64,000 nucleotides of DNA from Allacma fusca (taxonomy: Eukaryota > Arthropoda > Collembola > Symphypleona > Sminthuridae): NCBI GenBank assembly GCA_947179485.1, contig OX359245.1:20819067-20883066 (forward strand), written 5' to 3'. Each line of letters begins with the position of its first letter. Within the stretch, counting starts at the first letter, position 1. The notes under the pieces were generated by a model. The model made no database searches. It saw only the letters and a program-made list of their open reading frames with translations, and was not told the origin of the DNA. Positions 6,934 through 57,690 of the stretch are shown here, piece after piece. Position numbers and translations under genes: made by a program.

Positions 6934-6971
6934 CAATACTGCTTGGGGGCCGTACAAATATAACGTTATCA
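6934..6971 (+). repeat. Left terminal inverted repeat of the two-gene element
   Basis: Pairs with 11744-11780; the inner 19 bases tacaaatataacgttatca match exactly. Confidence 0.8.
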
Positions 6972-7397
6972 CAGATTGGACGATTTTGAAAGCATGTGTG
7001 ACTATTGTTAACAGAGTTAGCTTTTGTGGAGATGACCACCTACTGTTAACGTTATCCTTGTATCGTCAGGACCGCCATGACTTAAAATTTGAACATTTCA
7101 ACGTTCACCCTTCATTTCATACGAATGAAACAGTTTCTGCACCATTTTGAGTTCAATGCTCAAAGAACTTTTTAGGAATTAAGTTTAGATTCCAGTGAAG
7201 CTTACATTTTATAATAATTAAAGAAAGTCTGTTCCCGTCAGTAGTCAAGGAGTGGAAAGGTAAAACTATCAAATTTTTAAATAAGTAGTTTCTTATGAAT
7301 AAATTATAATTATTAATTTGAATTCATAAACTGTGACAAGTAAAATTGCATTTTGGTTTAAACCATCAATAATTTCATTCTAGATTTTGTTAAGACC

Positions 7398-8683
7398 ATG
7401 GGGGATGAGAACACCTGGACTGCTAAGGTAATATTTGTGCACGGAAAGATTTAAATGTTAAGGGAGACAGTTGTTTACTTTAATTTTTGCTTGTTAATGA
7501 CCAGAAAAATTCCTAACAATTTTTGGTAATAAAATAATTAGTGAAGGGATAAAGTTAAAGCTTGCTAGAACTAATATTTACAATCCAACTAAGTTTCATG
7601 AATTCATTCTGGAGTTTACGTTGCAACACATTGCTTGTAATTAAAGCTATGTATCACCATAAACTCATACATTGTATTTCATTTTAGGAAGAAACCATTG
7701 ATTGGTTCGCCAGTACATCACCGGCTGCAAGGATGATATTCCTGAAATCGCTGATTTTCATACTTCCGGAGGATGAGCTAAAGACAGTGAGTAACTACAT
7801 TTCAAAAGCAAAAGTTGAAGCAAAGCGGAAGAAATATGAAGGGTCCAAAAAATTAATCCGGCCAAAGTTGAAAGTTGTTTCAGCAGCACAATCAGTTCCT
7901 ACAGGGTCAGAACCAAAAGGGTCAGTACCAACGCGAAAGGTATTGACTGGACCACAATCAGTTGGATCCGTTCCTCTTGGGTCAGTACCTCATGGGTCAG
8001 TACCATTACCACTCATTCAGACGGACTTAATACTGCCAACTCAAGAAGACACAGGATGGTGGAAGAAGTTCAAACCATCACAAGTTTTGGCATTTGATTG
8101 CGAACACATTCATTTAAAAGAACTTGAAGGGGAGAAGCGAATCAAGTGTGCTGAAATTAGTATTGTAAACAATAAGCTGCAGGAAATATATTATTCCAAG
8201 ATTCAGTGGCCTGCTGGAAGCTTTATAACAAGCAAGAGACAAAAGCTAATAAATGGGTACGATTCACATTCTTTAATTAATGGAGAACCCTGGGAAATTG
8301 TTAGGAATAAAGTGAAGGAGATTTTTAAAGGAAATTTGATAATCACATGCGGCGGCACTACTGATTACGGGGGGTTGGGATTAGATCAATACGACTGCTC
8401 CGAATTTGATCGCTTCGATTTACATCAGCATTTTAAAAAGCCGGCAGTCAATCAATTTGGAATTTCTGATGATTTGAATCTCCAACCCATCGGACTTCGA
8501 TCTCTGTATCACTACTATTTTCATCAAGATATACAGTCAGGAATTCACAATTGTCAACAGGATGCTAAAGCTACAATGCAGTTGTTCATGGAAGTGTATG
8601 TGAAAAAAGAAAAAATCACCAATCTCAGTTCAAAAGTAAACACCAATGGACTAACTTATGCAAACATTCCAACGATTCGATAA
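7398..8683 (+). CDS. DEDDh 3'-5' exonuclease (REX4/ISG20-like) carried by the element
   Basis: Exon 7398-7427 (ATG, 10 codons) splices by GT-AG to 7688-8683 in phase 0, giving 341 residues. Residues 1-75 are basic; about 80-130 are a Pro/Ser linker with repeated GSVP units. The exonuclease fold follows: Exo I AFDCEH (D-x-E, about residue 147), Exo II with FDRFDLHQHF (about 255-265) and Exo III GIHNCQQDA (His and Asp, about 295-302). These are the DEDDh residues of RNase T/REX4/ISG20 enzymes, which remove 3' nucleotides from RNA or single-stranded DNA using two metal ions. It ends 79 bases from the end of the transposase gene, tail to tail. In the element it could trim transposon ends or act on RNA; that is inference. 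The first in-frame ATG of exon 2 (7733) is not needed as a start. Confidence 0.8.
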
Positions 8684-10436
8684 TGGTTTTAATTAATTAA
8701 AAGTTGAATCATAAATATAAACTTGTTTCAGCATTTTATTAATCTTTATAGCATAGTATGTATTACAACTCAACAAAATCAGAAACAAACCATTCGTTCA
8801 TATCTGTTATAATCCATATATTATCATTCGTTGTTTGTTCATCGCAGTTTGGGCCAGTACCTAATGGGTCAGTGCCAGGGTCGTCACTATTAAGACTTGA
8901 CGTTGTAATTTCTGGTGTATATAATGCATCAGTACCGTTTTGAGATCCATCTTGGTCAGTATCATTCACAACAAACGCAGTATGAGAAATTTCTTGAGAT
9001 CTGTTTGTTGATTTCTTAGCCTTATGGATTTTTCGATGCTGCTGAACACTTGTTTTAGAAGGAAAATAAATCTTACAAGCTGGACATATGCGCTCTTGAA
9101 CCTTCCCCTGTAAAGAAGGGCAGTCGAAATCATAGGGAAGGTCTGTATTTTTTTCGAGATTCCATAATACTATTCTTGAAGTCAAGCCTAAGTATTCTCC
9201 CAATCCTGGAACATCTGGTGAAACGACAGTTAGACCTTCATGATCTCTGTTGTATCGCAAGGGGGGTGGAAGAAATCCACCAGGTAAAACTTTCTTGATA
9301 TTGGTTTTTGGAGGTTTACAGCAAAGTTCGTTTCCACACTTCAATATCTGAAGTAGATACTGGGATTGACGAACATGTTCTGCTTTCCATTGCTCCGTTT
9401 CCGAGCCATAAAAACGAACTACATCCGTATTAGGGGGAATGTATTCAGAAAATACATCGAATCCATCGATACTTGTCTGATTCCAAACTGATGACAATAC
9501 TTCTCCTGCTTTTTGAAAGTTTTTAAGCTCTAACTCACAATCAGTGGTTCTTCCTTGTGAATCCAAATGAGTGCCATAAAACTCTTGGGGTAGAATGATT
9601 CCACTTAAATCATGCGATAATGGAGCCATACGTCTCTCGACAGGATTAAAAGCTGAATGATGAGGAGCGTTAGCTGCAATAAATATTGCATCCAAATCGT
9701 ACATTTTGAAATGCGAAATCGCTGCCAAAAGGGTTTTTGGAAATCTTGGGTTCTCATCAGGACCTCCGTCAACCATTACAATAAAAATTGGTTTGGCTTG
9801 ATTTTCTGGTACTGACCTTTCGGTACTGACCCCGTTCATTGTGAATTGTGAGAAGTTCTCCAGTTCCATCAATCTTCGGAAATCGTGGCAATGAGATGCA
9901 GCTGTACTGCTGTCATGCTTTCCACTACGAATGGCGATGTATGTGGGTCCCGAATATCCAAGTTTTCCGGAACAGTTAAAAGATAGTGCTGCATAAACAG
10001 AAGGAATTAGCTTATGTTTCGTTGCAACCACCCAATCATGATCTGGTAGTCTGATCCTATACTTCAAGTTCATCAAAATTGGTGCTTGTTTGTTAGCTGC
10101 AGGCAAACCAAGAGGAACTCTGGCTTTGTCATCTTGACTAAGGGCAAACACATTCACCGGCCCGAATAGTTCGGCAAGTTGCCTTAAATTTTTCATTGTC
10201 TCAGCAGCAAAATGTGAGTCTTGATGGTCTTTTCTTGCATTATTTTCAGCTCGAACTATTTTCACTGGAACAGTTGTTACGTGGCGCTTTCCCTCAATAC
10301 TGTTCCACTTTCTTGGAATCAATCTCAAATATAGACCTGATCTGCTGAGTGAAAAACCTATCAAACAAAACTCTGGTATACTAATTATGAAATTACAATG
10401 CAAATAAAGGGTCAGTGCTTTTATGAGCCAGTACCA
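7904..10436. repeat. Dispersed 11-mer gggtcagtacc in both orientations inside the element
   Basis: Exact or near copies on the + strand occur at 7904, 7919, 7979, 7994, 8851, 8866, 10409 and 10426; in the opposite orientation at 9808 and 9822. In the exonuclease gene they encode GSVP. In the transposase gene and its intron they lie in either orientation, so a protein repeat alone does not explain them. Confidence 0.65.
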
Positions 10437-11334
10437 AATTATCTGACCTTTCAGAAGAAGCTGTTGATGTAGATCATCAATTGTGCGACAGCATCGTAGC
10501 GATTCATCCCTTCGTTTTGGATCAGCACTTGTTGAAATATTAACAATATCGACAATCGTTTGCAGTAATAAAGGTTGACCCTCTTCTAGTCTTGGTCGTC
10601 CAGAATATTGTTCCCTCATTAGTGGTGATAACTCAGGATGCTGTTCAATTAACTTCGCCTTTTGCATTCTTTCCTTATGCCTAAGTTTTGTCATTGCCGA
10701 CGCACAACTTTTCAACCTATTTAGACGTTGCCGTTTCACTTTAAGATCCTTTTCTAACGTTTTCTTGCCTCCCTGTGTTATTTCTTTAGGCAGTCCGCAT
10801 TTTTTAAGTCCGTCTAGTTGTTTCTGGATGTCTTTGATTTGAGAACGCAGAAGAGCTTGAGCTGGTGATTTTCTTGTCTTCTCAGGAGCATAGTACATAT
10901 CGGTGCGGGTTGGAACCTCATCAGTAGATTTAGATGTTTCTCCGGAATTGTTTACGACCACAATAGTAGGCTCTAAAGGAACAATATTGCATGGTTTTTG
11001 TATCTGTCGTTGGGCTGCTTTCAGAAAAGCCGAGGCAATGGTTTGTTGACTTTTTCGCTTTAACTGCAGCTCATTGATTTTTTCCTTTACATCGGACAAG
11101 TTGTCTTTTCTTTCTCTCCAAAAGTTTTGTACAATTGTTTCAATGTCACCTTCTGTAAGTTTGTAATGTTAAAGTTATTTTAATACAACTTAAAATCAAG
11201 CTTTTGTACTGTAATGGACGTGTGTTCTTTAAAATTGTATTCTTACTTTTTTTATTCGGATAAGCTTCTTTCCATGTTTTTCGTAACTCGTTCCATAGTG
11301 AATGCTTTTCAGTTCGAGCAGACATTTTTGACAT
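8763..11334 (-). CDS. DDE transposase-like protein with C2H2 zinc finger
   Basis: I read three exons, 11334-11247, 11152-10448 and 10357-8763, phases consistent, 795 residues, no frame breaks. The 90-nt intron 10447-10358 has no stop, so the frame also reads through it; removing it yields KGFSLSRSGLYLRLIPR, which fits the family as I remember it. Order: a short Trp-rich N-terminal segment (KHSLWNELRKTWKEAYP), a Lys/Gln-rich coiled-coil-like region (about 45-170), then an RNase H-like core with ALSQDDKARVP (about 336), IVMVDGGPDENP (about 458) and FNPVERRM (about 503) as a probable D-D-E triad. A C2H2 finger CPACKIYFPSKTSVQQHRKIH lies near 690-710. It probably recognises and cuts the element's TIRs in the nucleus. 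A minus-strand AATAAA at about 8733-8738 follows the stop. Superfamily not assigned. Confidence 0.78.
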
Positions 11335-11743
11335 TGACCCATGTAGGTACTAGTCCTTTGTAATGTTAATTGCACCAATGTTGCTACAATTTAAATTGAG
11401 CTTTAGAATTAGTCACATTGGACAGCCGTCTCGGGCTATTGAATGTCATTACATATATACTTGTACTGTAGAAATGGTAGCTTTATGTAGTGAATGCATT
11501 TATTTATTAAACAATGATTTCTCCCGGCAATTTTCTGTAGTTCGTAGCTCAGTACCGCGATGGCGTACTACTACCAGTTTTATACTTGGTAGTACTAGGT
11601 ACTAAGCATTATATAGATATTATCGGGAAAGGTACTTTCATGAATATTTATACCGACATTTGTGTTAACGTTATCATGTGGATTTCTGACCTATGTGTGT
11701 AGTTACAATGGTTAGACTTTCCCAGTTTGACGACCCACCTCAT

Positions 11744-11780
11744 TGATAACGTTATATTTGTATGGCCCCTTGGCGTATTG
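11744..11780 (-). repeat. Right terminal inverted repeat of the two-gene element
   Basis: Reverse complement of the left terminus at 6934-6971 with a few differences. Confidence 0.8.
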
Positions 11781-11782
11781 GG

Positions 11783-12170
11783 AATTTTTAAAGTCTATAG
11801 CTGGTAGGGGAAAAAAGACAGAGTGTCCTGAAAATACAGTTACACGCTGGAGTTTGATGCGGGGAATCCAAATCTGAACTTAATTTTGAGTCAGGCGATC
11901 GGTTTTGGAAATTAAACTATGGACATGGTCAGAAATTGAAATTTTGAGAGTTTTCAAAGTCTATAGATGGCCAGGGAAAAGCGACAGAGTGACCTGAAAA
12001 TACATTTACACGCTTGAGTGTGATGAGGGGAATCCGAATCTGAAATTACTTTTGAGTCAGGCGAGCGAGTTTGGAAATGAAACTATGGACATGGTCAGAA
12101 TTTGAGATTTTCACATGTGTATGGTTGGTCATTGAAAAGCGACCTGACAATACATTTGCCTTTACTTTGT
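11783..12170 (+). repeat. Degenerate ~160 bp tandem repeat (about 2.5 copies)
   Basis: Successive units begin tttaaagtctatagctgg, tttcaaagtctatagatgg and a worn third copy. Each continues gcgacagagtgacctgaaaa, gggaatccgaatctgaaa and gaaactatggacatggtcag. The middle of the unit resembles the 165 bp satellite at 22110-27450 (ggggaatctgattctgaa ... tttagaaataaaaac). Confidence 0.7.
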
Positions 12171-22109: not shown

Positions 22110-25100
22110 TTCTTAAAAAAATCAATATCCTCATTTACCCCCGTATTCCAGAAATTCAAAGATTTTTTAAAAATTCAATATTGGTCAAATCCGGCCTAAA
22201 GATATGAAGGCGAAAGGAATCGACCATGGGCAATCCGATTCGAAAGTCAGATTGGAGTTCGGCCAACTGGTTTAGAAATAAAAACGGGGGTGTCCTCATT
22301 TACCCCCGTATTCCAGAAATTCAAAGATTTTTTAAAAATTTAATGTTCGCCAAATCCGGCCAAACTTTATGAAGGCGGAAGGAATCGACCATGGGGAATC
22401 TGATTCTGAAGTCAGAATTGAGTTCTGCCAAATAGTTTAGAAATAAAAACGGGGGTGTCCTCATTAACCCCCTTATTCCAGAAACTCAAAGATTTTTTAA
22501 AAATTCAGATTTGGCCAAATTCAAACCAAATTGATGAAGGCGAAAGGAATCGACCATGGGGAATCTGATTCTGAAGTCAGAATTGAGTTCGGCCAAATAG
22601 TTTAGAAATAAAAACGGGGGTGTGCTCATTTACCCCCGTATTCCAGAAATTCAAAGATTTTTTACAAATTCAATGTTCGCCAAATCCGGCCAAAATTTAT
22701 GAAGGCGAAAGGAATCGACCATGGGAAATCTGATTCTGAAGTCAGAATTGAGTTCGGCCAAATAGTTTAGAAATAAAAACGGGGGTGTGCTCATTTACCC
22801 CCGTATTCCAGAAATTCAAAGATTTTTTACAAATTCAATGTTCGCCAAATCCGGCCAAAATTTATGAAGGCAAAAGGAATCGACCATGGGGAATCTGATT
22901 CTGAAGTCAGAATTGAGTTCGGCCAAATAGTTTAGAAATAAAAACGGGGGTGTCCTCATTTACCCCCTTATTCCAGAAATTCAAAGAGTTTTTTAAAAAT
23001 TCAGATTTGGCCAAATTCAAACCAAATTGATGAAGGCGAAAGGAATCGACCATGGGGAATCTGATTCTGAAGTCAGAATTGAGTTCGGCCAAATAGTTTA
23101 GAAATAAAAACGGGGGTGGGCTCATTTACCCCCGTATTCCAGAAATTCAAAGATTTTTTACAAATTCAATGTTCGCCAAATCCGGCCAAACTTTATGAAG
23201 GCGGAAGGAATCGACCATGGGGAATCTGATTCTGAAGTCAGAATTGAGTTCGGCCAAATAGTTTAGAAATAAAAACGGGGGTGTCCTCATTTACCCCCTT
23301 ATTCCAGAAATTCAAAGAGTTTTTTAAAAATTCAGATTTGGCCAAATTCAAACCAAATTGATGAAGGCGAAAGGAATCGACCATGGGGAATCTGATTCTG
23401 AAGTCAGAATTGAGTTCGGCCAAATAGTTTAGAAATAAAAACGGGGGTGTCCTCATTTACCCCCGTATTCCAGAAATTCAAACATTTTTTACAAATTTAA
23501 TATTCGCCAAATCCGGCCAACATTTATGAAGGCGAAAGGAATCGACCATGGGGAATCTGATTCTGAAGTCAGAATTGAGTTCGGCCAAATAGTTTAGAAA
23601 TAAAAACGGGGGTGTCCTCATTTACCCCCTTATTCCAGAAATTCAAAGAGTTTTTTAAAAATTCAGATTTGGCCAAATTCAAACCAAATTGATGAAGGCG
23701 AAAGGAATCGACCATGGGGAATCTGATTCTGAAGTCAGAATTGAGTTCGGCCAAATAGTTTAGAAATAAAAACGGGGGTGTCCTCATTTACCCCCGTATT
23801 CCAGAAATTCAAACATTTTTTACAAATTTAATATTCGCCAAATCCGGCCAACATTTATGAAGGCGAAAGGAATCGACCATGGGGAATCTGATTCTGAAGT
23901 CAGAATTGAGTTCGGCCAAATAGTTTAGAAATAAAAACGGGGGTGTCCTCATTTACCCCCTTATTCCAGAAATTCAAAGATTTTTTACAAATTCAATATT
24001 CGCCAAATCCGACCAAAATTTACGAAGGCGAAAGGAATCGACCATGGGGAATCTGATTCTGAAGTCAGAATTGAGTTCGGCCAAATAGTTTAGAAATAAA
24101 AACGGGGGTGTCCTCATTTACCCCCATATTCCAGAAATTCAAAGATTTTTTAAAAATTTAATGTTCGCCAAATCCGGCCAAACTTTATGAAGGCGGAAGG
24201 AATCGACCATGGGGAATCTGATTCTGAAGTCAGAATTGAGTTCTGCCAAATAGTTTAGAAATAAAAACGGGGGTGTCCTCATTTACCCCCTTATTCCAGA
24301 AATTCAAAGAGTTTTTTAAAAATTCAGATTTGGCCAAATTCAAACCAAATTGATGAAGGCGAAAGGAATCGACCATGGGGAATCTGATTCTGAAGTCAGA
24401 ATTGAGTTCGGCCAAATAGTTTATAAATAAAAACGGGGGTGTGCTCATTTACCCCCGTATTCCAGAAATTCAAAGATTTTTTACAAATTCAATGTTCGCC
24501 AAATCCGGCCAAAATTTATGAAGGCAAAAGGAATCGACCATGGGGAATCTGATTCTGAAGTCAGAATTGAGTTCGGCCAAATAGTTTAGAAATAAAAACG
24601 GGGGTGTCCTCATTTACCCCCTTATTCCAGAAATTCAAAGAGTTTTTTAAAAATTCAGATTTGGCCAAATTCAAACCAAATTGATGAAGGCGAAAGGAAT
24701 CGACCATGGGGAATCTGATTCTGAAGTCAGAATTGAGTTCGGCCAAATAGTTTAGAAATAAAAACGGGGGTGTCCTCATTTACCCCCGTATTCCAGAAAT
24801 TCAAACATTTTTTACAAATTTAATATTCGCCAAATCCGGCCAACATTTATGAAGGCGAAAGGAATCGACCATGGGGAATCTGATTCTGAAGTCAGAATTG
24901 AGTTCGGCCAAATAGTTTAGAAATAAAAACGGGGGTGTCCTCATTTACCCCCTTATTCCAGAAATTCAAAGAGTTTTTTAAAAATTCAGATTTGGCCAAA
25001 TTCAAACCAAATTGATGAAGGCGAAAGGAATCGACCATGGGGAATCTGATTCTGAAGTCAGAATTGAGTTCGGCCAAATAGTTTAGAAATAAAAACGGGG

Positions 25101-27450
25101 GTGTCCTCATTTACCCCCGTATTCCAGAAATTCAAACATTTTTTACAAATTTAATATTCGCCAAATCCGGCCAACATTTATGAAGGCGAAAGGAATCGAC
25201 CATGGGGAATCTGATTCTGAAGTCAGAATTGAGTTCGGCCAAATAGTTTAGAAATAAAAACGGGGGTGTCCTCATTTACCCCCTTATTCCAGAAATTCAA
25301 AGATTTTTTACAAATTCAATATTCGCCAAATCCGACCAAAATTTACGAAGGCGAAAGGAATCGACCATGGGGAATCTGATTCTGAAGTCAGAATTGAGTT
25401 CGGCCAAATAGTTTAGAAATAAAAACGGGGGTGTCCTCATTTACCCCCATATTCCAGAAATTCAAAGATTTTTTAAAAATTTAATGTTCGCCAAATCCGG
25501 CCAAACTTTATGAAGGCGGAAGGAATCGACCATGGGGAATCTGATTCTGAAGTCAGAATTGAGTTCTGCCAAATAGTTTAGAAATAAAAACGGGGGTGTC
25601 CTCATTTACCCCCTTATTCCAGAAATTCAAAGAGTTTTTTAAAAATTCAGATTTGGCCAAATTCAAACCAAATTGATGAAGGCGAAAGGAATCGACCATG
25701 GGGAATCTGATTCTGAAGTCAGAATTGAGTTCGGCCAAATAGTTTAGAAATAAAAACGGGGGTGTGCTCATTTACCCCCGTATTCCAGAAATTCAAAGAT
25801 TTTTTACAAATTCAATGTTCGCCAAATCCGGCCAAAATTTATGAAGGCAAAAGGAATCGACCATGGGGAATCTGATTCTGAAGTCAGAATTGAGTTCGGC
25901 CAAATAGTTTAGAAATAAAAACGGGGGTGTCCTCATTTACCCCCTTATTCCAGAAATTCAAAGAGTTTTTTAAAAATTCAGATTTGGCCAAATTCAAACC
26001 AAATTGATGAAGGCGAAAGGAATCGACCATGGGGAATCTGATTCTGAAGTCAGAATTGAGTTCGGCCAAATAGTTTAGAAATAAAAACGGGGGTGTCCTC
26101 ATTTACCCCCGTATTCCAGAAATTCAAACATTTTTTACAAATTTAATATTCGCCAAATCCGGCCAACATTTATGAAGGCGAAAGGAATCGACCATGGGGA
26201 ATCTGATTCTGAAGTCAGAATTGAGTTCGGCCAAATAGTTTAGAAATAAAAACGGGGGTGTCCTCATTTACCCCCTTATTCCAGAAATTCAAAGAGTTTT
26301 TTAAAAATTCAGATTTGGCCAAATTCAAACCAAATTGATGAAGGCGAAAGGAATCGACCATGGGGAATCTGATTCTGAAGTCAGAATTGAGTTCGGCCAA
26401 ATAGTTTAGAAATAAAAACGGGGGTGTCCTCATTTACCCCCGTATTCCAGAAATTCAAACATTTTTTACAAATTTAATATTCGCCAAATCCGGCCAACAT
26501 TTATGAAGGCGAAAGGAATCGACCATGGGGAATCTGATTCTGAAGTCAGAATTGAGTTCGGCCAAATAGTTTAGAAATAAAAACGGGGGTGTCCTCATTT
26601 ACCCCCTTATTCCAGAAATTCAAAGATTTTTTACAAATTCAATATTCGCCAAATCCGGCCAAAATTTACGAAGGCGAAAGGAATCGACCATGGGGAATCT
26701 GATTCTGAAGTCAGAATTGAGTTCGGCCAAATAGTTTAGAAATAAAAACGGGGGTGTCCTCATTTACCCCCATATTCCAGAAATTCAAAGATTTTTTAAA
26801 AATTTAATGTTCGCCAAATCCGGCCAAACTTTATGAAGGCGGAAGGAATCGACCATGGGGAATCTGATTCTGAAGTCAGAATTGAGTTCTGCCAAATAGT
26901 TTAGAAATAAAAACGGGGGTGTCCTCATTTACCCCCTTATTCCAGAAACTCAAAGATTTTTTAAAAATTCAGATTTGGCCAAATTCAAACCAAATTGATG
27001 AAGGCGAAAGGAATCGACCATGGGGAATCTGATTCTGAAGTCAGAATTGAGTTCGGCCAAATAGTTTAGAAATAAAAACGGGGGTGTGCTCATTTACCCC
27101 CGTATTCCAGAAATTCAAAGATTTTTTACAAATTCAATGTTCGCCAAATCCGGCCAAAATTTATGAAGGCGAAAGGAATCGACCATGGGAAATCTGATTC
27201 TGAAGTCAGAATTGAGTTCGGCCAAATAGTTTAGAAATAAAAACGGGGGTGTGCTCATTTACCCCCGTATTCCAGAAATTCAAAGATTTTTTACAAATTC
27301 AATGTTCGCCAAATCCGGCCAAAATTTATGAAGGCGAAAGAAATCGACCATGGGGAATTTGATTCTGAAATCGGAATGGAAATCGGTCAACCGGTTTAGA
27401 AATTAAACCGGGGATGTCCTTATTTACCCTCGTATTCCTGAATTGCAAAT
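22110..27450 (+). repeat. Satellite: ~165 bp monomers in a 1323 bp higher-order repeat
   Basis: About 32 head-to-tail monomers. Two main types are visible. A-type monomers contain ttcgccaaatccggcc; B-type contain tttggccaaattcaaacc. From 22907 on, the order B A B A B A A A repeats with a period of 1323 bp (matching positions 22907, 24230, 25553), almost unchanged between copies; the outer monomers at both edges are more divergent. Each monomer has acgggggt ... acccccgt or a near version, an 8-bp hairpin stem. Open frames of 72 codons recur only because the repeats are alike and are not genes. Confidence 0.95.
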
Positions 27451-27584
27451 ATTTTTTAAACATTCTAATTTGTGAGAATTGAAACTAATTTTTTTAAGAA
27501 TGAAGGTCGCGACGCTGAAATGAGAATTTGTTGAATACAAAATATTTAATTACTTTTCCGTATGCGTTATGTAGAATGGTTTGC

Positions 27585-35384: not shown

Positions 35385-38300
35385 CACTGCTGCCCGCCAG
35401 GCTACCTAGTCAAGTCTAGTCAAGTCTTTAAGGTTTAGAGCCACAACTAGTCAAGTCTAGTCAAGTCAGCTGTATGTTTAAGTAGCAATAGTCAAGTCTA
35501 GTCCTAGTCTTGATTCTGTAGCTGGTTCCCTAGTCAAGTCTAGTCAATTCACCTAGTCACATTATATTTTTTATAAACATTCCTTCGTTTTAAATAGCAA
35601 CATTTATTTTCAAAAACTTGAGTTTCGTTGAGTTCAAAATTTTCAGATTTTAGCCAGTACCTCTAGCAAAAAACAAGGTAATTTTATTTACTTCAAACGG
35701 CGTACAAATGAGAAAAAAACACGTGTAGTTTACAACATCACTACAGTAATAATGTTCAGCCAGATTTGGGGGCAGTTGGATTCACGGGCTGGCCCACCTT
35801 GGCCCAGCCATAGTAACAAATTTAGGGCCAGGGAAAATCTGTTTTTCTTTTCTTTAATTTTTCTGAAACTAGTGCTGACAATAAGGAATCACGTTTTGAT
35901 TCCACCGGAATCAAACTTGGTATTAACTCACGAAAAACTGGTTCTGACAGTGAGCAACTCCGTAAGCTACACGGAGTGCTCTATACGAGTTTTAATCAGG
36001 AATTTATATGGTGTTAATACCAGCTGACATGTTTTAAATTAGTAAACAGATTAAAACGTTGGAGGTGAATTATAATTTCGGGTATTGAAAACCTAAACCG
36101 TCGTTTCGGCGTTCAGGTTGGGTTATTTCAACTGGAAAGGAGTGCAAATGTCACTGCGATGGTCCCTTTAAGGTCTTGCAGCACCCACTGTATTCGGGGT
36201 TCAACAAGTACATGGTACAATATAAGGAGATTTGTGCTGTGTGAACCAGCCTAATCATACTAGGTTTATATTCAAGGGCCTCTACCAGGAAGGACAGTAT
36301 TTCAAAATTTTTTAACTTTAGTTGCAATTTGGTAAGTACTAATAGAAGAAAATATTACTACTTTTAAATATAGAAATTAACGCAGGAAATATATTCTAGC
36401 TTTCACTATCAAGATTCAGTTATGATATGATCAATTGCAATGTTAAGCAACAAATTGTAACTAAAGACTAGATCTTCCCTCAACCTTTCTACGTATCCAG
36501 TAAACAATTTCATGTTTTGATCCTTCGAAACGAAACCATATACTTGGTTCGTAACTTTAATTTTCATTTACATGAGGGAGCATCAAGTATGTCAATTGTG
36601 AATTGACTAGGTTTTGCATGAAGTCATGATAGTCAAGTCTAGTCAAGTCATATGTTTTCGCAAGTTGTCCTAGTCTATTCTAGTGTAGTCTCATAATAGT
36701 AACACCATGCCTAGTCAAGTCAAGTCTATTCTTTTACGTCCATTTTGCCTCCTAGTCTAGTCAAGTCTAGACTTTCCTAGTCAAGTCTGACTAGACTAGG
36801 GCAGCAGTGGCACTGCTGCCCGCCAGGCTACCTAGTCAAGTCTAGTCAAGTCTTTAAAGTTTAGAGCCACAACTAGTCAAGTCTAGTCAAGTCAGCTGTA
36901 TGTTTAAGTAGCAATAGTCAAGTCTAGTCCTAGTCTTGATTCTGTAGCTGGTTCCCTAGTCAAGTCTAGTCAATTCACCTAGTCACATTATATTTTTTAT
37001 AAACATTCCTTCGTTTTAAATAGCAACATTTATTTTCAAAAACTTGAGTTTCGTTGAGTTCAAAATTTTCAGATTTTAGCCAGTACCTCTAGCAAAAAAC
37101 AAGGTAATTTTATTTACTTCAAACGGCGTACAAATGAGAAAAAAACACGTGTAGTTTACAACATCACTACAGTAATAATGTTCAGCCAGATTTTAGTTGA
37201 ATCGAAAATTGGCAGTAGGGTTGGATTCACGGGCTGGCCCACCTTGGCCCAGCCATAGTAACAAATTTAGGGCCAGGGAAAATCTGTTTTTCTTTTCTTT
37301 AATTTTTCTGAAACTAGTGCTGACAATAAGGAATCACGTTTTGATTCCACCGGAATCAAACTTGGTATTAACTCACGAAAAACTGGTTCTGACAGTGAGC
37401 AACTCCGTAAGCTACACGGAGTGCTCTATACGAGTTTTAATCAGGAATTTATATGGTGTTAATACCAGCTGACATGTTTTAAATTAGTAAACAGATTAAA
37501 ACGTTGGAGGTGAATTATAATTTCGGGTATTGAAAACCTAAACCGTCGTTTCGGCGTTCAGGTTGGGTTATTTCAACTGGAAAGGAGTGCAAATGTCACT
37601 GCGATGGTCCCTTTAAGGTCTTGCAGCACCCACTGTATTCGGGGTTCAACAAGTACATGGTACAATATAAGGAGATTTGTGCTGTGTGAACCAGCCTAAT
37701 CATACTAGGTTTATATTCAAGGGCCTCTACCAGGAAGGACAGTATTTCAAAATTTTTTAACTTTAGTTGCAATTTGGTAAGTACTAATAGAAGAAAATAT
37801 TACTACTTTTAAATATAGAAATTAACGCAGGAAATATATTCTAGCTTTCACTATCAAGATTCAGTTATGATATGATCAATTGCAATGTTAAGCAACAAAT
37901 TGTAACTAAAGACTAGATCTTCCCTCAACCTTTCTACGTATCCAGTAAACAATTTCATGTTTTGATCCTTCGAAACGAAACCATATACTTGGTTCGTAAC
38001 TTTAATTTTCATTTACATGAGGGAGCATCAAGTATGTCAATTGTGAATTGACTAGGTTTTGCATGAAGTCATGATAGTCAAGTCTAGTCAAGTCATATGT
38101 TTTCGCAAGTTGTCCTAGTCTATTCTAGTGTAGTCTCATAATAGTAACACCATGCCTAGTCAAGTCAAGTCTATTCTTTTACGTCCATTTTGCCTCCTAG
38201 TCTAGTCAAGTCTAGACTTTCCTAGTCAAGTCTGACTAGACTAGGGCAGCAGTGGCACTGCTGCCCGCCAGGCTACCTAGTCAAGTCTAGTCAAGTCTTT

Positions 38301-41145
38301 AAAGTTTAGAGCCACAACTAGTCAAGTCTAGTCAAGTCAGCTGTATGTTTAAGTAGCAATAGTCAAGTCTAGTCCTAGTCTTGATTCTGTAGCTGGTTCC
38401 CTAGTCAAGTCTAGTCAATTCACCTAGTCACATTATATTTTTTATAAACATTCCTTCGTTTTAAATAGCAACATTTATTTTCAAAAACTTGAGTTTCGTT
38501 GAGTTCAAAATTTTCAGATTTTAGCCAGTACCTCTAGCAAAAAACAAGGTAATTTTATTTACTTCAAACGGCGTACAAATGAGAAAAAAACACGTGTAGT
38601 TTACAACATCACTACAGTAATAATGTTCAGCCAGATTTTAGTTGAATCGAAAATTGGCAGTAGGGTTGGATTCACGGGCTGGCCCACCTTGGCCCAGCCA
38701 TAGTAACAAATTTAGGGCCAGGGAAAATCTGTTTTTCTTTTCTTTAATTTTTCTGAAACTAGTGCTGACAATAAGGAATCACGTTTTGATTCCACCGGAA
38801 TCAAACTTGGTATTAACTCACGAAAAACTGGTTCTGACAGTGAGCAACTCCGTAAGCTACACGGAGTGCTCTATACGAGTTTTAATCAGGAATTTATATG
38901 GTGTTAATACCAGCTGACATGTTTTAAATTAGTAAACAGATTAAAACGTTGGAGGTGAATTATAATTTCGGGTATTGAAAACCTAAACCGTCGTTTCGGC
39001 GTTCAGGTTGGGTTATTTCAACTGGAAAGGAGTGCAAATGTCACTGCGATGGTCCCTTTAAGGTCTTGCAGCACCCACTGTATTCGGGGTTCAACAAGTA
39101 CATGGTACAATATAAGGAGATTTGTGCTGTGTGAACCAGCCTAATCATACTAGGTTTATATTCAAGGGCCTCTACCAGGAAGGACAGTATTTCAAAATTT
39201 TTTAACTTTAGTTGCAATTTGGTAAGTACTAATAGAAGAAAATATTACTACTTTTAAATATAGAAATTAACGCAGGAAATATATTCTAGCTTTCACTATC
39301 AAGATTCAGTTATGATATGATCAATTGCAATGTTAAGCAACAAATTGTAACTAAAGACTAGATCTTCCCTCAACCTTTCTACGTATCCAGTAAACAATTT
39401 CATGTTTTGATCCTTCGAAACGAAACCATATACTTGGTTCGTAACTTTAATTTTCATTTACATGAGGGAGCATCAAGTATGTCAATTGTGAATTGACTAG
39501 GTTTTGCATGAAGTCATGATAGTCAAGTCTAGTCAAGTCATATGTTTTCGCAAGTTGTCCTAGTCTATTCTAGTGTAGTCTCATAATAGTAACACCATGC
39601 CTAGTCAAGTCAAGTCTATTCTTTTACGTCCATTTTGCCTCCTAGTCTAGTCAAGTCTAGACTTTCCTAGTCAAGTCTGACTAGACTAGGGCAGCAGTGG
39701 CACTGCTGCCCGCCAGGCTACCTAGTCAAGTCTAGTCAAGTCTTTAAAGTTTAGAGCCACAACTAGTCAAGTCTAGTCAAGTCAGCTGTATGTTTAAGTA
39801 GCAATAGTCAAGTCTAGTCCTAGTCTTGATTCTGTAGCTGGTTCCCTAGTCAAGTCTAGTCAATTCACCTAGTCACATTATATTTTTTATAAACATTCCT
39901 TCGTTTTAAATAGCAACATTTATTTTCAAAAACTTGAGTTTCGTTGAGTTCAAAATTTTCAGATTTTAGCCAGTACCTCTAGCAAAAAACAAGGTAATTT
40001 TATTTACTTCAAACGGCGTACAAATGAGAAAAAAACACGTGTAGTTTACAACATCACTACAGTAATAATGTTCAGCCAGATTTTAGTTGAATCGAAAATT
40101 GGCAGTAGGGTTGGATTCACGGGCTGGCCCACCTTGGCCCAGCCATAGTAACAAATTTAGGGCCAGGGAAAATCTGTTTTTCTTTTCTTTAATTTTTCTG
40201 AAACTAGTGCTGACAATAAGGAATCACGTTTTGATTCCACCGGAATCAAACTTGGTATTAACTCACGAAAAACTGGTTCTGACAGTGAGCAACTCCGTAA
40301 GCTACACGGAGTGCTCTATACGAGTTTTAATCAGGAATTTATATGGTGTTAATACCAGCTGACATGTTTTAAATTAGTAAACAGATTAAAACGTTGGAGG
40401 TGAATTATAATTTCGGGTATTGAAAACCTAAACCGTCGTTTCGGCGTTCAGGTTGGGTTATTTCAACTGGAAAGGAGTGCAAATGTCACTGCGATGGTCC
40501 CTTTAAGGTCTTGCAGCACCCACTGTATTCGGGGTTCAACAAGTACATGGTACAATATAAGGAGATTTGTGCTGTGTGAACCAGCCTAATCATACTAGGT
40601 TTATATTCAAGGGCCTCTACCAGGAAGGACAGTATTTCAAAATTTTTTAACTTTAGTTGCAATTTGGTAAGTACTAATAGAAGAAAATATTACTACTTTT
40701 AAATATAGAAATTAACGCAGGAAATATATTCTAGCTTTCACTATCAAGATTCAGTTATGATATGATCAATTGCAATGTTAAGCAACAAATTGTAACTAAA
40801 GACTAGATCTTCCCTCAACCTTTCTACGTATCCAGTAAACAATTTCATGTTTTGATCCTTCGAAACGAAACCATATACTTGGTTCGTAACTTTAATTTTC
40901 ATTTACATGAGGGAGCATCAAGTATGTCAATTGTGAATTGACTAGGTTTTGCATGAAGTCATGATAGTCAAGTCTAGTCAAGTCATATGTTTTCGCAAGT
41001 TGTCCTAGTCTATTCTAGTGTAGTCTCATAATAGTAACACCATGCCTAGTCAAGTCAAGTCTATTCTTTTACGTCCATTTTGCCTCCTAGTCTAGTCAAG
41101 TCTAGACTTTCCTAGTCAAGTCTGACTAGACTAGGGCAGCAGTGG
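35385..41145 (+). repeat. Four head-to-tail copies of a 1445 bp TIR-ended unit
   Basis: Units start at 35385, 36811, 38256 and 39701; lengths 1426, 1445, 1445 and 1445. Each starts cactgctgccc and ends gggcagcagtgg, so every junction forms a near-perfect palindrome. Both ends are filled with agtcaagtct words. Copies 2-4 look identical by eye; copy 1 differs by a small replacement near 35768 (ggggcag in place of a longer segment with tagttgaatcgaaaattgg). The centre holds inverted segments (for example tgattccaccggaatca). A 91-codon frame recurs in each copy, with no recognised domain; I do not treat it as a gene. No outer 8-bp duplication. Confidence 0.9.
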
Positions 41146-56080: not shown

Positions 56081-56102
56081 GTGTGTTGGTAGCTAATTTC
56101 CA

Positions 56103-57690
56103 TCATGCCATCACACCATCACTCCATCACACCATCAGACCATCACTCCATCACACCATCACACCATCACTCCATCACACCATCACACCATCACTCCATC
56201 ACTCCATCACTCCATCACTCCATCACTCCATCACTCCATCACTCCATCACTCCATCACACCATCACAAAATCACACCATCACTCCATCACACCATCACAA
56301 AATCACACCATCACTCCATCACACCATCACAAAATCACACCATCACAAAATCACACCATCACAAAATCACACCATCACAAAATCACACCATCACAAAATC
56401 ACACCATCACAAAATCACACCATCACAAAATCACACCATCACAAAATCACACCATCACAAAATCACACCATCACAAAATCACACCATCACAAAATCACAC
56501 CATCACAAAATCACACCATCAAAAAACCACACCATCACTCCATTACACCATCACTCCATCAAAAAATTACAAAATCACACCATCACTCCATCACACCATC
56601 ATACCATCACAAAATCACACCATCACAAAATTACACCATCACAAAATCACACCATCACAAAATCACACCATCACAAAATCACACCATCACAAAATCACAC
56701 CATCACAAAATCACACCATCACAAAATCACACCATCACAAAATCACACCATCACAAAATCACACCATCACAAAATCACACCATCACAAAATCACACCATC
56801 ACAAAATCACACCATCACAAAATCACACCATCACAAAATCACACCATCACAAAATCACACCATCACAAAATCACACCATCACAAAATCACACCATCACAA
56901 AATCACACCATCACTCCATCACACCATCACACCATCACTCCATCACACCATCACACCATCACTCCATCACTCCATCACTCCATCACTCCATCACTCCATC
57001 ACACCATCACAAAATCACACCATCACTCCATCACACCATCACAAAATCACACCATCACTCCATCACACCATCACAAAATCACACCATCACAAAATCACAC
57101 CATCACAAAATCACACCATCACAAAATCACACCATCACAAAATCACACCATCACAAAATCACACCATCACAAAATCACACCATCACAAAATCACACCATC
57201 ACAAAATCACACCATCACAAAATCACACCATCACAAAATCACACCATCACAAAATCACACCATCACAAAATCACACCATCACAAAATCACACCATCAAAA
57301 AACCACACCATCACTCCATTACACCATCACTCCATCAAAAAATTACAAAATCACACCATCACTCCATCACACCATCATACCATCACAAAATCACACCATC
57401 ACAAAATTACACCATCACAAAATCACACCATCACAAAATCACACCATCACAAAATCACACCATCACAAAATCACACCATCACAAAATCACACCATCACAA
57501 AATCACACCATCACAAAATCACACCATCACAAAATCACACCATCACAAAATCACACCATCACAAAATCACACCATCACAAAATCACACCATCACAAAATC
57601 ACACCATCACTCCATCACACCATCACTCCATCACTCCATCACACCATCACACCATCACAAAATCACACCATCACTCCATCACTATATAGT
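56103..57690 (+). repeat. Long catcac-type array with a 776 bp higher-order duplication
   Basis: Basic units atcacaccatcacaaa and catcactc alternate for 1.6 kb. The irregular block with aaaaaaccacaccatc occurs at 56521 and again at 57297, so a 776 bp segment has been duplicated. Two frames stay open for more than 540 codons because no stop can arise from the unit; this is not a gene. Confidence 0.95.

What the first reader, a model, noticed from the sequence alone, without database searches (positions are those of the whole stretch)
6934..11780. A 4.85 kb transposon pairing a DEDDh exonuclease with a DDE transposase-like protein
Seen: ~38-bp terminal inverted repeats, two intact convergent spliced genes, nothing else inside. 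One protein has all DEDDh exonuclease landmarks (DCEH, HNCQQDA); the other has a probable D-D-E core and a C2H2 finger. Known: DEDDh enzymes trim 3' ends; DDE enzymes cut and join DNA. Inference: an accessory exonuclease could process transposon ends, host repair intermediates or silencing RNAs. I know no described eukaryotic cut-and-paste superfamily with this gene pair.
Basis: partly seen in the sequence, partly recalled or inferred. Interest (0 to 1): 0.88.

Follow-up and report, generated by a model that had tools for sequence, protein, structure and literature searches.

The report
Jumping gene paired with an exonuclease
A springtail-like genome carries a recently active cut-and-paste transposon that pairs its cutting enzyme with a second enzyme, an RNA-type exonuclease; related transposons in that genome often keep the same pair, so the second enzyme probably does something useful for the transposon.

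Summary
The element is 4,824 bp (6946-11769), with 26-bp TIRs (one mismatch) and two convergent spliced genes whose stop codons lie about 80 bp apart. The host genome holds four full-length copies (three others, 98.8-99.5% identical to the window copy) and nine 329-348-bp end-only derivatives. All 13 have a 3-bp target duplication: TTA/TAA in 11, CTA and TTG in one each.

The transposase is a DDE enzyme related to the bacterial ISAzo13 family. Its published eukaryotic counterpart is Zator, which also makes 3-bp duplications. The partner is an ISG20-type DEDDh exonuclease.

The pairing is no accident. Of 33 exonuclease loci in the genome, 21 lie within 10 kb of a transposase locus (0.08 expected), all 21 convergent (four are copies of this element), and the two genes diverged together. 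Sister families without the exonuclease also occur, so it is accessory.

DEDDh plus DDE has a printed precedent: KolobokD, a different transposase superfamily with a TREX/ERI1-like enzyme. This is therefore a new variant of a known kind. What the exonuclease acts on is untested; I lean to RNA.

The parts
6946..11769 (.). whole transposon, 4,824 bp
   Evidence: Common ends of four full-length copies and nine short derivatives, each with a 3-bp direct repeat outside
6946..6971 (+). left 26-bp terminal inverted repeat
   Evidence: pair I1, 96% complementary to the right end; ends fixed by 13 copies
11744..11769 (-). right 26-bp terminal inverted repeat
   Evidence: pair I1
6943..6945 (.). left copy of the 3-bp target site duplication (TTG here)
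   Evidence: TTG on both sides; 13 of 13 copies have a 3-bp repeat
11770..11772 (.). right copy of the 3-bp target site duplication (TTG)
7398..8683 (+). ISG20-type DEDDh exonuclease gene, exons 7398-7427 and 7688-8683, 341 aa; catalytic D137/E139/D226/H287/D292 in the numbering of window:7688-8680
   Evidence: ORF; Pfam RNase_T E 0.011, below its cutoff; profile of 12 relatives matches ISG20 (1wlj) E 1.1e-19; splice sites read by eye, supported by P0121
8763..11334 (-). ISAzo13/Zator-like DDE transposase gene, exons 11334-11247, 11152-10448, 10357-8763, 795 aa; D346/D467/E511 in ORF numbering; C-terminal C2H2-like finger
7044..7062 (-). left subterminal copy of the TIR core motif, inverted, 3 mismatches, about 100 bp in
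   Evidence: 3 matches in the window, two of them the TIRs, against 0.09 expected
11658..11674 (+). right subterminal copy of the motif (..TAACGTTAT), about 95 bp in
   Evidence: pair I7

Best explanation
This is an autonomous cut-and-paste DNA transposon of the ISAzo13/Zator kind. Its DDE transposase should bind the TIR and the subterminal TAACGTTAT repeats, cut the element out and join it at TWA-like trinucleotides with a 3-bp stagger. It also carries an accessory ISG20-type 3'-5' exonuclease gene in convergent orientation, a partner that has travelled with this transposase through much of the group's history in this genome. SHOWN: the ends, the 3-bp duplications, several copies, both gene families, conserved catalytic residues, and linkage with co-divergence of the two genes. 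INFERRED: cut-and-paste chemistry, and a benefit of the exonuclease to the element. MOST LIKELY ROLE (inference, about 45%): it acts on RNA, trimming or degrading small or antisense RNAs that would silence the element (the convergent genes could make overlapping 3' ends), because its nearest solved relatives are ISG20, ISG20L2 and the small-RNA-degrading SDN1. Because exonuclease-free sister families also multiplied, it is not needed for the transposition reaction as such. The 0.5 below is for the whole statement; the identity of the element and its two genes alone I would put near 0.9.
Against: No activity, expression or excision data. The substrate is not testable here, and a DNA polymerase III polC-type chain also matches the exonuclease profile (2p1j, E 1.7e-6). 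The exonuclease structure model failed (pLDDT 37). dN/dS between near-identical copies rests on 5 to 26 changes per comparison and does not show selection; for one pair (L029/L030) the exonuclease ratio is 2.3 on 10 changes. One full-length copy (L009) has lost catalytic D226. 24 of 45 transposase loci have no exonuclease match at E 0.001 or less. The ISAzo13 match is remote: the window protein scores 21.1 bits against a curated cutoff of 200.
Confidence: 0.5

Rival explanations
1. Same transposon, but the exonuclease acts on DNA: it trims 3' ends of excision or integration intermediates, or of the gap left behind, and so biases repair, as its authors propose for KolobokD.
For: KolobokD precedent (passages of PMC9587614). 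The partner is tied to a DNA-cutting enzyme. DEDDh enzymes of other groups act on DNA; a polC-type chain matches at E 1.7e-6.
Against: The best relatives are ISG20 and ISG20L2 (E 1.1e-19 and 2.9e-18), described as RNA exonucleases in abstracts listed. The copies have clean outer ends with 3-bp duplications in 13 of 13; exonuclease-free sisters L031 and L032 have them too. Clean ends of inserted copies say little about donor-site repair.
Confidence: 0.33
2. The exonuclease is a passenger: a host ISG20-like gene captured once and carried along without use to the element.
For: Several lineages lack it: 24 of 45 transposase loci have no match at E 0.001 or less. One of the four full-length copies has a frameshifted exonuclease and one lacks a catalytic residue. 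Some exonuclease loci stand alone (L034, L045, L046).
Against: Catalytic residues persist in relatives only about 28-58% identical, and pairs diverge together; a useless gene should decay. The three standing-alone loci examined fall among paired ones in the tree.
Confidence: 0.12
3. The transposase belongs to PIF/Harbinger, and the second gene stands in for its Myb-like helper protein.
For: TWA 3-bp target duplications and G-rich termini; two-gene architecture. Harbinger's Myb helper, TWA preference and G-rich ends are recalled; its 3-bp duplication is in a passage of PMC12730594.
Against: The ISAzo13 profile is the only transposase family matched by more than one of 26 members in NCBIfam. Comparison with one IS5 transposase gives probability 0.9 over 45 columns.
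Confidence: 0.05

Closest known systems
KolobokD DNA transposons (PMC9587614)
   Same: A DDE transposase and a DEDDh exonuclease in one eukaryotic transposon
   Different: Kolobok transposase with C/DxxH motif and TTAA 4-bp duplications; exonuclease similar to exuperantia, TREX and ERI1. Here an ISAzo13-like transposase, 3-bp duplications and an ISG20-type exonuclease, which suggests a separate acquisition
Zator superfamily and the bacterial ISAzo13 family
   Same: ISAzo13-related DDE transposase, 3-bp target duplications, TIRs
   Different: The ISAzo13 transposase examined is a single short protein (P0122, 407 aa). Searches made here found no exonuclease described in Zator.
ISG20 / ISG20L2 / SDN1 exonucleases
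   Same: DEDDh catalytic core, profile match E 1.1e-19 to 2.4e-5
   Different: Those are host genes; this one lies between transposon TIRs and has an extra N-terminal segment and a GSVP-type repeat linker
KolobokE / KolobokH / KolobokP
   Same: Transposons carrying an accessory nucleic-acid enzyme beside the transposase
   Different: Lambda-exonuclease-like nuclease, RecQ helicase or His-Me nuclease instead of a DEDDh exonuclease; other transposase superfamily

Membership tests
Zator / ISAzo13-like DNA transposons | DDE transposase related to ISAzo13 | tested here: met
   NF033519 matches 19 of 26 relatives, best E 4.2e-9, window E 1.3e-4 (21.1 bits; curated cutoff for bacterial members 200); PF07592 2 of 26; hhalign E 2.8e-8 with the triad aligned. 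Remote relationship, not an ISAzo13 member by that cutoff
Zator / ISAzo13-like DNA transposons | 3-bp target site duplication (passage of PMC10045372) | tested here: met
   13 of 13 copies; relatives L031 TAA, L032 TTA, L033 TTA (read)
Zator / ISAzo13-like DNA transposons | groups with reference Zator transposases in a tree | not testable with these tools
   No Repbase or named Zator sequence in any collection used
KolobokD | DEDDh exonuclease beside the transposase | tested here: met
KolobokD | TTAA-specific 4-bp target duplication | tested here: not met
   3-bp duplications TTA, TAA, CTA, TTG in 13 copies
KolobokD | C/DxxH motif between second D and E of the transposase | tested here: not met
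   No such motif between D467 and E511 in the window protein or in the majority consensus of 26 relatives (read by eye)
PIF/Harbinger | IS5-related transposase | tested here: inconclusive
   hhalign to one IS5 transposase probability 0.9; no such family among those shown for 26 members (which show 25 families each of 31 and 69)
PIF/Harbinger | 3-bp TWA target duplication | tested here: met
   11 of 13 copies TTA or TAA; the length is shared with Zator, so not decisive
ISG20-type DEDDh exonuclease | profile similarity to ISG20/ISG20L2 | tested here: met
   E 1.1e-19 and 2.9e-18; single-sequence search 3.3e-5 and 0.004
ISG20-type DEDDh exonuclease | five catalytic residues D, E, D, H, D | tested here: met
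   Present in the window gene; D137 19, E139 18, D226 19, H287 20, D292 21 of 21 rows (gaps and broken rows counted as misses; four rows are near-identical copies)
ISG20-type DEDDh exonuclease | 3'-5' exonuclease activity and substrate | not testable with these tools
   Needs protein

The most novel reading that the evidence does not exclude
A lineage of Zator-like transposons in springtails took up an ISG20-family exoribonuclease and uses it as a counter-silencing weapon that removes the small or antisense RNAs made against the element, independently of the DEDDh gene in KolobokD. The convergent gene order, kept in 21 of 21 linked pairs, may itself be part of the device.
Probability: 0.3. Interest if true: 0.82.

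Novelty: new variant of a known kind. Interest (0 to 1): 0.6.

Why it matters
It shows a DEDDh exonuclease joined to a second, unrelated DDE transposase lineage by what looks like a separate acquisition, so exonuclease partnership may be a recurrent solution in eukaryotic transposons. The genome holds both exonuclease-bearing and exonuclease-free families of the same transposase, plus one copy with both genes open. That makes the question of what accessory nucleases do for transposons directly testable. It also ties a large transposase family that Pfam barely recognises (527 proteins at E 0.01 or less among 8,000 scored; PF07592 in 2 of 26) to ISAzo13/Zator.

Tried and rejected
Target duplication of 5 bp (CTTGG), read by eye at the window copy: rejected once 13 copies showed 3 bp. 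KolobokD membership: rejected on target duplication and motif. Host exonuclease gene beside unrelated TIRs: rejected. Transposase relatives in viral contigs and exonuclease relatives in bacterial/archaeal genome contigs: none confirmed. Exonuclease relatives in 5.8 billion proteins: one Allacma fusca protein only, by single sequence and by a two-sequence profile; both searches are insensitive to 30-40% relatives. Allacma's two proteins come with different contig lengths (15,969 and 19,015), so apparently different contigs, and their DNA could not be fetched; the pairing there is not shown. Exonuclease structure: model too poor to use. Foldseek alone gave nothing at E 0.001 or less. The right-end DNA search of the genome and the ISAzo13 family searches in the genome did not complete. 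An empty-site search was not run. In some searches only 26 of the 83 aligned transposases were scanned; only 120 of the 527 were listed. Of eight ISAzo13-hit plasmid loci fetched, six entered the ISAzo13 alignment (L049 and L055 left out; three of the six are cut at an end). L064 and L065 and other loci fetched as short pieces entered the transposase tree only. All seven other long window frames scanned had no Pfam match at E 0.01.
Full report
WHAT IS THERE. The window lies in a 392.7-Mb assembly of 91 contigs. It is an animal genome probably close to the springtail Allacma fusca, judging by the best relatives of both proteins; the species itself was not identified. The element runs from 6946 to 11769. 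A search of the genome with its left end gave 25 matches, 13 of them at 95% identity or more, the window included. Of the 24 other places, 20 were fetched and compared. Three carry the whole element at 98.8-99.5% identity (L009, L010, L011). Nine are 329-348 bp long, made of about 139 bp of the left end and up to about 213 bp of the right end (L012-L020). The remaining eight fetched (L021-L028) are distant matches (72-82%) and were not used to define the ends. Outside the ends, all 13 copies show a 3-bp direct repeat: TTA in seven, TAA in four, CTA in one, and TTG in the window copy.

THE TWO GENES. The plus-strand gene (7398-8683, two exons) encodes a DEDDh exonuclease; the minus-strand gene (11334-8763, three exons) encodes a DDE transposase with a C-terminal finger. 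The splice sites are read by eye and agree with the Allacma proteins. The stop codons are about 80 bp apart. Among the four full-length copies only the window copy has both frames open: L009 has a 5-nt deletion in the transposase; L010 has an insertion in the exonuclease and three deletions in the transposase; L011 has two deletions in the transposase; L010 and L011 also each show a stop in the transposase (the 8579 insertion that one search prints for all three belongs to L010 alone, as the frames show). L009 also lacks the catalytic aspartate D226.

WHAT THE EXONUCLEASE IS. A single-sequence PDB search gives ISG20 at E 3.3e-5. A profile of 12 relatives gives ISG20 1.1e-19, ISG20L2 2.9e-18, a polC-type chain 1.7e-6 and SDN1 2.4e-5. 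In the protein collection only one relative appears, in Allacma fusca, 51% identical over the whole length.

DO THE TWO GENES BELONG TOGETHER. In the genome the transposase gives 85 matched stretches (56 of 296 candidates scored), which collapse to 45 loci. The exonuclease gives 54 stretches at E 1 or less; the 38 at E 0.001 or less collapse to 33 loci, and the other 16 were dropped. Of the 33, 21 lie within 10 kb of a transposase locus where 0.08 are expected, and all 21 are convergent. Four of the 21 are the copies of this element, and a few others are near-identical to each other; one search resolves about 14 exonuclease-bearing lineages. Of the 12 unpaired loci, one (L047) has transposase remains beside it that the genome search had not listed, three fetched ones (L034, L045, L046) show none in the 6-7 kb fetched, and eight were not fetched. 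For 13 paired loci (18 less five near-identical to a kept one), transposase and exonuclease distances correlate at r 0.53, and none of 5,000 permutations reaches it. The separate trees show most of the same groups, including the window family with Allacma; L044 and L038 sit differently in the two, and some nodes are weakly supported. Catalytic residues are kept in most rows.

THE EXCEPTIONS. 24 of 45 transposase loci have no exonuclease match at E 0.001 or less. Two fetched representatives are complete elements with TIRs and 3-bp duplications: L031 (3,958 bp between the repeat ends as found, no exonuclease; four other loci have identical match values and four more similar ones) and L032 (4,613 bp). 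L033 is a different, exonuclease-bearing element of about 5,188 bp with a TTA duplication. In the transposase tree the exonuclease-free groups lie among exonuclease-bearing ones, with weak support for some placements, which fits an old gain with later losses. So the exonuclease is old in this lineage but dispensable.

HOW IT PROBABLY WORKS. Established knowledge of DDE transposases gives the cut-and-paste step. The TIR and the mirrored subterminal TAACGTTAT motif about 95-110 bp from each end are the likely transposase sites (inference). The exonuclease is best seen as an accessory factor. I put 45% on an RNA target (silencing RNAs or the overlap of the convergent transcripts), 33% on DNA intermediates, 12% on no function, and the rest on other roles. 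None of this was tested.

NOVELTY. Searches made for print precedents. In what these listed and in the passages read, only KolobokD (passages of PMC9587614) joins DEDDh and DDE in one transposon. I found no printed Zator-like element with an exonuclease in these searches, which cover open-licence papers only. Hence new variant of a known kind.

Noticed in passing
7891-8005, 8838-8892, 9803-9844, 10413-10440: A 15-bp repeat (GGGTCAGTACC + 4) occurs in both genes, on either strand, and in degenerate form in a transposase intron; 8 of the window's 9 matches with at most one mismatch lie in the element (0.31 expected for the whole window). Allacma's exonuclease has it expanded as PQGSV-type repeats, and a related locus L043 has it in the transposase gene.
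   Followed up: partly
11778-12111: A 166-bp satellite-like dimer begins 8 bp outside the right end of the element; no copy of it was found in the left flank or elsewhere in the window.
   Followed up: no
22128-27471: A 5.3-kb array of about 165-bp satellite units with higher-order periods of 331 and 496 bp.
   Followed up: no
35406-39819: Similar 41-bp CTAGTCAAGT arrays recur at 35406, 36832, 38277 and 39722, spaced 1,426-1,445 bp, which suggests a tandem array of about 1.44-kb units.
   Followed up: no
56099-57683: A 1.6-kb array of an 8/16-bp unit (TCCATCAC) is open in three plus-strand frames for 530-594 codons; likely a simple repeat, not a gene.
   Followed up: no
L034:4903-5499, L045:1748-2335, L046:4916-5479: Exonuclease reading frames of the same family without a detectable transposase beside them; they could be decayed elements or genes taken over by the host.
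   Followed up: partly
L032:5029-5763 (minus strand): An exonuclease-free element between perfect 28-bp inverted repeats holds two further open frames upstream of its transposase, one with cysteine-rich, RING-like spacing (by eye); possible captured gene.
   Followed up: no
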